From positions 35,025 to 99,024 of the forward strand of contig QMSP01000005.1 in assembly GCA_003650925.1 (NCBI GenBank): a stretch of 64,000 nt of DNA, written 5' to 3'. The notes below the pieces were generated by a model, which saw only the letters and a list, made by a program, of their open reading frames with translations, did no database searches and was not told where the DNA came from. Source of the stretch: Thermoprotei archaeon (GTDB lineage Archaea; Thermoproteota; Thermoprotei; QMSL01). The position numbers and the translations under genes were made by a program. The stretch's first letter is position 1, and each line of letters opens with the position of its first letter. This document shows positions 20,339 to 21,096 of this stretch, piece by piece.

Positions 20339-21096
20339 TCAGGTCTTGAATTTCTTGTATTCCTCTATATACTTCGCTATTTCCTCCTTGGTTAGCTTTC
20401 TAAACTTGCCTTCAGCTACAGTTGCAATGCCCATTTCAATTTTCTCAGCATCTATTCCTCCTTCCATGACTTTCTCTAGAGCTTTCAGGGCAAGAAAGAT
20501 AGCCTCCTTGAAGCTTATCTCCTTCTTATACTCCTTCTCTAGAAACTCCCTCACTGTGGCCTCCCCTGCCCCGATCACATGTGCATAGTACTTCCTATAG
20601 GCTCCCCATGGGTCAGTGCCAAATAGCTCAGGACCATTGAAGTCTATGCCGCCTATTATGAAGGCTACTCCAAAGGGTCTAACTCCTGCATGCTGAGTGT
20701 ATATTTGCTTAAGATCGCAGATCCTCCTCGTCAAGGTTTCTACGGATATGGGCTCATCGTATACCAGCCTGTTTATTTGAGCCTCGACTCTAGCCCTATC
20801 TATGAGCACCCTTGCATCAGAGGGAATTCCTGAGAACACTAGGCCTATGTGCTCATCTATTTGATAAATCTTATCCACAGGCTCCATGAGAGGTGAGAAT
20901 TCCTTCCTCTCCGCAATAAGCACTACACCTTCAGAACATCTAATGCCCACTGCAGTAAGGCCTTTCCTCACAGCCTCTGCTGCGTATTCTACTTGATATA
21001 ATCTCCCATCTGGCGAGAAGATCGTTATGGCCCTTTTACGGCCGCTCCTGAGGAGCGGCTATCGTAGCCCATACTGGGTGGAGTGAACATGTTCAT
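20339..21096 (-). CDS. psmA: Proteasome alpha subunit, interrupted by a 26-nt intron
   Basis: Outer-ring subunit of the 20S proteasome. Exon 1 (21096-21061) encodes MNMFTPPSMGYD; after 26 nt, exon 2 (21034-20339) begins RAITIFSPDGRLYQVEYAAE and runs to the stop. Joined, they give the universal alpha signature GYDRAITIFSPDGRLYQVEY and a 243-residue protein. Unspliced, exon 1 reads into TAA after 12 further codons, and exon 2 alone starts only at GTG 20971 (MRKGLTAVG), lacking the gate region. Start is ATG 21096 or ATG 21090; GAGGTGAT better fits the latter. TATA box TTTATATACT lies about 50 nt upstream. Confidence 0.93.
21035..21060 (-). other. Mini-intron of psmA with bulge-helix-bulge splice motif
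   Basis: Seen directly: on the minus strand exon 1 ends UACG-AU, the intron starts A-GCCGCUCC, loop UCA, GGAGCGGC, CGUA, AA, then exon 2 AGGGCC. The inner helix is a perfect 8 bp, the central helix UACG/CGUA is exactly 4 bp, and the two bulges (AUA and AAA) are 3 nt each. Cutting after the second base of each bulge, as archaeal splicing endonuclease does, excises exactly 26 nt and restores frame. The outer helix is weak (one C-G pair, or GGC/GCC with a larger bulge). The junction is ambiguous by one A without effect on the product. Confidence 0.9.

What the first reader, a model, noticed from the sequence alone, without database searches (positions are those of the whole stretch)
20339..21096. 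Proteasome alpha gene split by a 26-nt bulge-helix-bulge mini-intron
Seen in sequence: exon 1 stops matching the family at GYD, exon 2 resumes at RAITIF, and exactly 26 nt lie between (21060-21035). They form an 8-bp hairpin with a 3-nt loop on a 4-bp UACG/CGUA helix flanked by two 3-nt bulges. Cutting after the second base of each bulge gives the in-frame junction. Known: archaeal splicing endonuclease cuts such motifs, mostly in tRNA and rRNA, and in few protein genes (cbf5 is the classic case). Inference: psmA mRNA is spliced, making an essential gene depend on the tRNA splicing enzymes, and perhaps coupling proteasome output to them. The intron is near the smallest that can hold the motif. 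I know of no report of a psmA intron.
Basis: partly seen in the sequence, partly recalled or inferred. Interest (0 to 1): 0.93.

Follow-up and report, generated by a model that had tools for sequence, protein, structure and literature searches.

The report
Spliced mini-intron in proteasome gene
In four related archaea the proteasome alpha gene is interrupted by a 25-26-letter insert that is predicted to be cut out of the messenger RNA by the tRNA-splicing enzymes, and matching inserts sit in other core genes, so splicing of protein genes in archaea is likely commoner than the single textbook case suggests.

Summary
Removing the insert restores GYD^RAITIF; the insert forms a bulge-helix-bulge (BHB). 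All four genomes held for this order carry an insert at the same codon boundary (26, 26, 25, 25 nt). Hairpin sequences differ but pairing is kept, and two different frame shifts are involved, which rules out sequencing error and makes frameshifting very unlikely. In 26 of 26 inspected genomes outside the order the site is empty. The genome encodes a crenarchaeal-type (alpha-beta)2 splicing endonuclease and RtcB. I read it as a real BHB pre-mRNA intron; no RNA evidence was available.

It is not alone. A scan of 864 kb (40%) of the genome found BHB mini-introns in cbf5 (the known site), in both repeats of the TATA-binding protein gene, and in porG. The first TBP intron also occurs in seven other genomes of the class, with strong covariation; purA of another relative has one too. 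In papers I could search, cbf5 was the only coding sequence reported with such an intron. Wrong in the finding: 26 nt is not near the minimum (cbf5 introns reach 16). Regulatory coupling is untested.

The parts
21061..21090 (-). psmA exon 1 (MFTPPSMGYD)
   Evidence: N-terminus matches solved archaeal alpha subunits across the junction
21035..21060 (-). 26-nt BHB mini-intron
20339..21034 (-). psmA exon 2 (RAITIFSPDG...), including stop codon
21063..21066 (-). 5' strand of central BHB helix (TACG, exon Tyr-Asp codons)
   Evidence: invariant in 4 of 4 genomes
21060..21062 (-). 5' bulge AUA; predicted cut between 21061 and 21060
21041..21059 (-). inner hairpin GCCGCTCC-TCA-GGAGCGGC
   Evidence: 3 of 8 pairs show changes on both sides among 4 genomes, all cells with letters paired
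21037..21040 (-). 3' strand of central BHB helix (CGTA, intron)
21034..21036 (-). 3' bulge AAA; predicted cut between 21035 and 21034
21026..21073 (-). span of the weak outer exon helix (UAUGG 21073-21069 with CCAUA 21030-21026)
   Evidence: 83% of cells paired; not formed in the minimum-energy folds of the three relatives
21097..21102 (-). Shine-Dalgarno-like GAGGTG before the exon-1 ATG
   Evidence: read; similar purine-rich sites in the three relatives; inference
21141..21150 (-). TATA-like box TTATATACTA, putative promoter of the psmA transcript
   Evidence: read; inference, not tested
16983..20327 (-). downstream genes SBDS, Rrp4, two RNase PH-family genes (by position and order Rrp41 and Rrp42), L37Ae (proteasome-exosome superoperon; this name is recalled)
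   Evidence: Pfam
42002..42099 (-). intron-containing tRNA gene with the same BHB layout, an internal reference for the host enzyme
   Evidence: its minimum-energy fold shows the two 3-nt bulges; anticodon and cut sites read by eye

Best explanation
A 25-26-nt insert with a bulge-helix-bulge fold splits psmA at the same codon boundary in all four genomes held for this order, and it is likely removed from the mRNA by the host's (alpha-beta)2 tRNA-splicing endonuclease and the exons rejoined by RtcB. Shown: the insert, its predicted fold and covariation, its conservation in the order, empty sites outside, the exact restoration of the conserved YDR gate motif, and the presence of both enzyme genes. 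Inferred: transcription from upstream of exon 1, folding of the pre-mRNA, cuts after the second base of each bulge, and ligation to GAU-AGG. Unspliced mRNA would give only a roughly 20-residue peptide, so alpha-subunit synthesis should depend on splicing, while the downstream exosome genes on the same strand should still be readable from unspliced or cut RNA. The psmA intron belongs to a set of such mini-introns in core genes of this genome (cbf5, tbp twice, porG).
For: (1) Same-site inserts in G000, G001, G003 and G002 (26, 26, 25, 25 nt), each restoring GYDRAITIF. (2) Structure: 66 of 70 cells paired (94.3%), 3 of 18 pairs with compensatory changes, all in the inner stem; slid controls pair 31-50%. 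(3) The four are one clade of a 30-row PsmA tree, 100/99 support. (4) Empty site: 26 of 26 loci read outside the order have GYDRA contiguous; a covariance model of intron plus exons matches its full length at psmA in the 4 order genomes and, in 8 other genomes, a 40-nt stretch at the start of psmA, i.e. exons minus 26 nt (81 genomes of the class). (5) Only the spliced protein passes the curated cut-off of TIGR03633 (322.4 against 287.35; the 210-aa unspliced ORF scores 256.7). (6) No second match of alpha strength in the four genomes (G002 and G003 are incomplete). (7) In the 21 codons before the first in-frame start of exon 2, pairwise differences are 7-13 synonymous and 0-2 non-synonymous. 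(8) Endonuclease with a catalytic and a structural subunit; the alpha subunit aligns with A. pernix 3p1z_B including its catalytic His and loop Lys44; RtcB in 4 of 4. (9) The same cut rule on the cbf5 insert restores the catalytic GTLDPKVSG in 3 of 3 genomes, a site where splicing was reported in other crenarchaea (PMC2738675). (10) The rule also restores TBP and PorG motifs.
Against: No RNA, cDNA or proteomic data. None of the 9 database proteins of this clade (72% identity or more, among the best 120 listed of 7228 hits) reads GYDRA contiguously, so no spliced product has surfaced. The outer helix is weak, and minimum-energy folds of the three relatives omit it. With four sequences the covariation is modest: the number of pair types does not exceed shuffles (414 of 500 as high) and the number of pairs changed on both sides is reached by 33 of 500. 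Draft genomes; G003 is 69% complete.
Confidence: 0.94

Rival explanations
1. The ribosome skips the insert (translational bypass, as in phage T4 gene 60, recalled) or frameshifts, and no RNA is cut.
For: The insert is a short hairpin inside one coding sequence; bypass elements can be of this size (recalled).
Against: No landing codon matching the take-off codon GAT lies at the exon-2 edge: the last triplets of the inserts are AAA, AAG, AAG, GAG; only the G001 insert holds a GAY at all, well inside it. Inserts of 26 and 25 nt need different frame changes. Conservation fits BHB geometry, including the exon-intron helix, and the same geometry occurs in a tRNA, cbf5, tbp and porG.
Confidence: 0.02
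2. Exon 1 is a leader peptide with a regulatory hairpin, and a shorter functional alpha subunit starts at the GTG in exon 2 (20971).
For: An open frame from that GTG exists (210 aa) and is how the database lists it (P0001).
Against: It would lack the N-terminal 31 residues with the YDR gate motif, which is kept in the great majority of the alpha subunits read here; codons before the GTG are under strong purifying selection; it fails the family cut-off; exon 1 matches the family N-terminus.
Confidence: 0.02
3. The endonuclease cuts the mRNA but ligation is rare, so the BHB works as a switch that destroys psmA mRNA or frees the downstream exosome genes.
For: BHB cleavage can act on untranslated mRNA parts (HVO_1309 5' UTR in Haloferax, PMC7714728, passages); exosome genes follow psmA.
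Against: It would leave no way to make the only alpha subunit found; the exact in-frame junction is kept in four genomes.
Confidence: 0.02
4. Sequencing or assembly error, or a pseudogene.
For: All four genomes are drafts with many contigs.
Against: Different inserts with compensatory changes in four genomes, at least two from separately named records (JAGGUS01 isolate AUK080, QMSL01 isolate B3_G16); no other alpha gene found; purifying selection.
Confidence: 0.003

Closest known systems
cbf5 pre-mRNA intron of Sulfolobales and Desulfurococcales (Watanabe 2002 and Yoshinari 2006 seen only as citations; Yokobori 2009, PMC2738675, abstract, section 5, part 1 of section 8 and passages read)
   Same: Short (16-44 bp), BHB often unconventional, cut after the second bulge base, removed by the hetero-oligomeric endonuclease; interrupts an indispensable codon; also present in this order at the catalytic-Asp codon (19-22 nt in 3 genomes).
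   Different: Different gene and site; splicing was shown by cDNA for cbf5 in other species, not for psmA; the same-site psmA intron is confined, in what I examined, to one order.
tRNA introns removed by archaeal EndA
   Same: BHB layout and enzymes; the tRNA in this window has it.
   Different: Host RNA is an mRNA without tRNA fold; the outer helix is weak.
HVO_1309 5' UTR BHB intron (Haloferax volcanii, PMC7714728, passages read)
   Same: BHB in an mRNA cut by EndA.
   Different: Non-coding leader in a euryarchaeon; here the coding sequence itself is split.
Putative 12-bp introns in an archaeal virus (Peng et al., as cited in PMC2738675)
   Same: Very short inserts in protein genes.
   Different: 12 bp, a multiple of three; splicing not demonstrated; whether they form a BHB was not examined here.
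Archaeal 20S proteasome alpha subunit
   Same: The spliced product is an ordinary PsmA.
   Different: The gene is split inside the YDR gate motif (motif role: PMC10349882, passages read).

Membership tests
Archaeal BHB pre-mRNA intron | Removal restores the conserved reading frame exactly | tested here: met
   4 of 4 genomes; TIGR03633 cut-off passed only when spliced (window gene only)
Archaeal BHB pre-mRNA intron | BHB at both junctions: 4-bp helix, two 3-nt bulges, cut after second base | tested here: met
   outer helix weak, so relaxed form; the cut itself is predicted
Archaeal BHB pre-mRNA intron | Structure kept by compensatory changes | tested here: met
   (3 pairs in 4 sequences; small sample, not all measures exceed shuffles)
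Archaeal BHB pre-mRNA intron | Host has broad-specificity (alpha-beta)2 endonuclease with loop Lys | tested here: met
   own genome only; by sequence
Archaeal BHB pre-mRNA intron | Ligase RtcB present | tested here: met
   4 of 4
Archaeal BHB pre-mRNA intron | Spliced cDNA observed | not testable with these tools
   no RNA data; database proteins show no spliced product
Archaeal BHB pre-mRNA intron | Cleavage by the host endonuclease in vitro | not testable with these tools
   needs an experiment
Mobile rRNA-type BHB intron with homing endonuclease | Encodes a homing endonuclease | tested here: not met
   insert is 25-26 nt
Group I or II intron | Ribozyme core | tested here: not met
   26 nt is too short
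Translational bypass element | Matching take-off and landing codons | tested here: not met

The most novel reading that the evidence does not exclude
BHB mini-intron splicing of mRNA is a multi-gene, still-evolving layer of gene expression across a class of archaea: core genes for the proteasome, the general transcription factor TBP, 2-oxoacid oxidoreductase, purine synthesis and pseudouridine synthase must be spliced by tRNA enzymes. New introns are still being gained, as in TBP, where one genome carries a second intron at the mirror site of the protein's other repeat; gain may occur by reverse splicing or by gene conversion between the repeats. Gene finders miss these introns and list truncated proteins.
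Probability: 0.7. Interest if true: 0.92.

Novelty: new member of a known kind. Interest (0 to 1): 0.87.

Why it matters
A 2020 experimental paper states that, besides its own UTR case, only the cbf5 mRNA BHB intron had been reported in archaea (PMC7714728, passages). Here one genome carries BHB introns in at least four protein genes, two of them (psmA, tbp) central to the cell, conserved through an order or beyond. If they are spliced, archaeal mRNA splicing becomes a system that can be studied: why such introns persist in single-copy core genes, how they are gained (the TBP repeat pair is a natural experiment), whether endonuclease or ligase levels set proteasome and TBP output, and how many archaeal core genes are mis-annotated as truncated or missing.

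Tried and rejected
Rejected: sequencing error, frameshift, bypass, leader peptide (see rivals). Counts of strict BHB motifs are not enriched in this genome (11 in 864 kb of G000, 4 in 323 kb of G001, 12 in 400 kb of G006); only homology tells introns from chance. The genome meant as a negative control (G006) was not one: one of its 12 motifs restores the purA motif GDEG^KGK. In G000, 5 of 11 strict motifs restore conserved motifs; the other 6 I regard as chance, without testing each; likewise 3 of 4 in G001 and 11 of 12 in G006. In the relaxed scans the remaining candidates that I looked at read like normal gene starts or overlaps; I did not test them by homology. The relaxed scan of G001 did not list its psmA intron among the best 14; the strict scan did; its tbp, porG and cbf5 introns lay outside the sample. 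A first structure string for the cbf5 alignment was misregistered by two columns and replaced; with three similar sequences it gives no covariation, and the porG alignment (3 rows) is also too small (156 of 500 shuffles as high). The covariance model also gave weak matches away from psmA in five genomes (G064, G039, G021, G058, G060; E 4e-4 to 0.09); the two with loci (L122, L129) show no psmA there, the other three were not inspected. The 31-nt interruption of psmA in one Asgard genome (L067) is unproven: its junction lies in a direct repeat and the second bulge lacks the usual A; among 83 genomes searched in its class (81 with a match) I saw no like break in the match table, but their N-termini were not read at DNA level. 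The phylum search (171 genomes) could not resolve the N-terminus when a match began at residue 8, so I draw no count from it. In the porG comparison 20 of 27 outgroup loci fit the contiguous pattern; 7 did not fit my pattern and were not resolved.

Literature: ten searches listed no paper whose title or shown abstract start reports an intron in psmA, tbp, porG or purA of archaea. The parts I read of seven splicing papers (PMC2738675, PMC13149111, PMC7667871, PMC12397907, PMC7714728, PMC3978253, PMC6379350) name no archaeal coding sequence with a BHB intron other than cbf5, apart from putative virus introns; [quoted passage not shown] Subscription journals and bioRxiv are not in that library.

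Full report
OBSERVATION. On the minus strand, exon 1 (21090-21061) encodes MFTPPSMGYD and exon 2 (21034-20339) encodes RAITIFSPDGRLYQVEYA...; the 26 nt between them (21060-21035) are AGCCGCTCCTCAGGAGCGGCCGTAAA. The insert forms an 8-bp hairpin on a UACG/CGUA helix with bulges AUA and AAA. The conventional BHB cut (after the second base of each bulge) gives GAT|AGG and a 241-codon frame. NCBIfam TIGR03633 scores this product at 322.4 bits (cut-off 287.35), while the unspliced ORF from the internal GTG scores 256.7. The spliced protein aligns without a gap at the junction with a solved archaeal alpha subunit (6he5_A).

CONSERVATION. All 61 genomes have a match to PsmA (in one 57%-complete genome, G060, only a weak one). 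The 25- and 26-nt inserts shift the frame differently, yet each spliced product reads GYDRAITIF. Hairpin stems are GCCGCUCC/GGAGCGGC, GUCAUCCC/GGGGUGAC, GCCACUC/GAGUGGC and GCCACCC/GGGUGGC. All central-helix and inner-stem cells with letters pair, and three inner pairs change on both sides. The exon-side helix is weaker (83% of cells) and absent from the minimum-energy folds of the three relatives, as in the unconventional BHBs of cbf5 (PMC2738675).

EMPTY SITES. In 26 of 26 loci read outside the order (L008-L033; the N-termini of the remaining 31 genomes were not read at DNA level) GYDRA is contiguous. In 80 loci from GTDB genomes (best 80 of 582), 77 are contiguous (73 fit the simple pattern, 4 have a substitution), two are the G002 and G003 records again, and one (L067) is interrupted elsewhere. 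A covariance model searched over 81 genomes of the class finds the full-length intron at psmA in the four order members; in eight others it matches the start of psmA with a 40-nt stretch, the exons without the insert (weaker matches elsewhere are told under rejected steps). The four form one clade of the PsmA tree (100/99), so one gain is enough.

SELECTION. Over the 21 codons between the insert and the first in-frame start codon, pairwise comparisons show 7-13 synonymous and 0-2 non-synonymous codon differences; the last six exon-1 codons show 1-2 and 0. Among the best 120 listed protein-database hits, nine belong to this clade (72% identity or more); none reads GYDRA contiguously: they begin within exon 2 or inside the translated insert (P0003, P0008). 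Gene callers have thus truncated or mis-started them, and no spliced product has been recorded.

MACHINERY AND SETTING. The genome has two EndA genes. One carries the Tyr/His/Lys catalytic residues (read by eye) and aligns with A. pernix EndA (3p1z_B, 183 bits), including the His mutated in 3ajv and the loop Lys44 (query Lys43, counted by eye) that gives broad specificity (PMC6379350, passages). The other lacks the His (read by eye) and matches A. pernix more weakly. RtcB is present once in each of the four genomes. The window's tRNA gene at 42099-42002 has a BHB intron with the same layout (CUUG/CAAG helix, bulges UAA and GAA); ARAGORN calls it Tyr, but I read the loop CUUGUAA as Thr(UGU). 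psmA is followed by SBDS, Rrp4, two RNase PH-family genes (Rrp41 and Rrp42 by position) and L37Ae, the proteasome-exosome superoperon (name recalled). The intron splits the YDR motif, which stabilises the closed and open gate (PMC10349882, passages).

NOT ALONE. (a) cbf5 is interrupted in G000 (22 nt), G001 (19) and G002 (20); no match in G003. Cutting by the BHB rule turns the unspliced GTLEP, followed at once or after one codon by a stop, into GTLDPKVSG. The published cbf5 intron disrupts the catalytic residue's codon (PMC2738675), as here; the order is not identifiable in that paper's table. (b) A scan of 864 kb (40%) of G000 for BHBs whose bulges read AN^A on both sides gave 11 motifs. Five restore conserved proteins: psmA, cbf5, porG (20 nt, FGPE^RMGAP), and TBP twice, at YNPE^QFPGL (31 nt) and MYEPE^QFPGL (27 nt), the same position of the two repeats. 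Spliced TBP, PorG and PurA each pass an NCBIfam cut-off (304 over 270; 233.7 over 225; 510.7 over 368). (c) The first TBP intron is in 4 of 4 order genomes and also in six genomes of genus g5 and in G030; the 18 other genomes with a TBP match (29 of 31 searched) are contiguous at both repeats. The 11 introns (26-31 nt) pair in 128 of 128 cells, 8 of 12 pairs change on both sides, one of them in the exon-intron helix, and 0 of 500 shuffles reach the covariation score; the number of pair types alone does not exceed shuffles. The second TBP intron is only in G000 of the four order genomes. (d) porG introns are in G000, G001 and G002 (20, 22, 23 nt; no match in G003); 20 of 27 outgroup loci are contiguous and 7 unresolved. 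(e) G006, of another family, has a 22-nt BHB insert in purA (GDEG^KGK); copy number was not checked.

MECHANISM. Most likely the pre-mRNA folds into the relaxed BHB, the (alpha-beta)2 endonuclease cuts after the second base of each bulge, and RtcB joins GAU to AGG. None of this was observed in RNA. Because the unspliced frame stops after about 20 residues, PsmA synthesis should require splicing; the downstream genes should not. Regulation by endonuclease or ligase supply is possible but unsupported.

NOVELTY. The kind (BHB pre-mRNA intron) is known from cbf5. PMC7714728 (2020, passages read) calls cbf5 the only other reported mRNA BHB intron. My ten searches of the held library listed no report for psmA, tbp, porG or purA; unheld literature may differ. 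psmA is thus a new member of a known kind; the wider set is what should surprise a specialist. The density (5 introns in 40% of the genome) would suggest about a dozen in all, a rough figure since the scan misses weak motifs.

Noticed in passing
L159:3712-3742 and 4016-4042 (G000:C1:60001-80000): TATA-binding protein gene with two BHB mini-introns (31 and 27 nt) at the same position of its two repeats; the first is shared by the order, six genomes of genus g5 and G030, the second only by this genome among the four of the order.
   Followed up: yes
L159:5388-5407; L279; L277: porG (2-oxoacid oxidoreductase gamma subunit) with 20-23-nt BHB introns at FGPE^R in three order genomes.
   Followed up: yes
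L139, L138, L137 (G000, G001, G002): cbf5 intron of 19-22 nt at the catalytic Asp codon in these three genomes.
   Followed up: yes
L228 minus strand, insert starting at 6254 (G006): 22-nt BHB insert in purA at GDEG^KGK; one genome only, copy number unchecked.
   Followed up: partly
L067:261-291 (Helarchaeota Hel_GB_A): psmA of one Asgard genome is interrupted by 31 nt seven bases further downstream; removal restores GYDRAITQF and a BHB-like fold exists, but the junction lies in a direct repeat and no like break was seen in the match table of 83 genomes of its class.
   Followed up: partly
window 42002-42099: tRNA called Tyr by ARAGORN reads as an intron-containing Thr(UGU) tRNA.
   Followed up: partly
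P0003 and P0008: Database PsmA proteins whose N-terminus is translated insert; P0008 (GHKR) implies CAY in place of CGT, which would need exon Tyr codon TAT: a testable compensatory change in the exon-intron helix.
   Followed up: no
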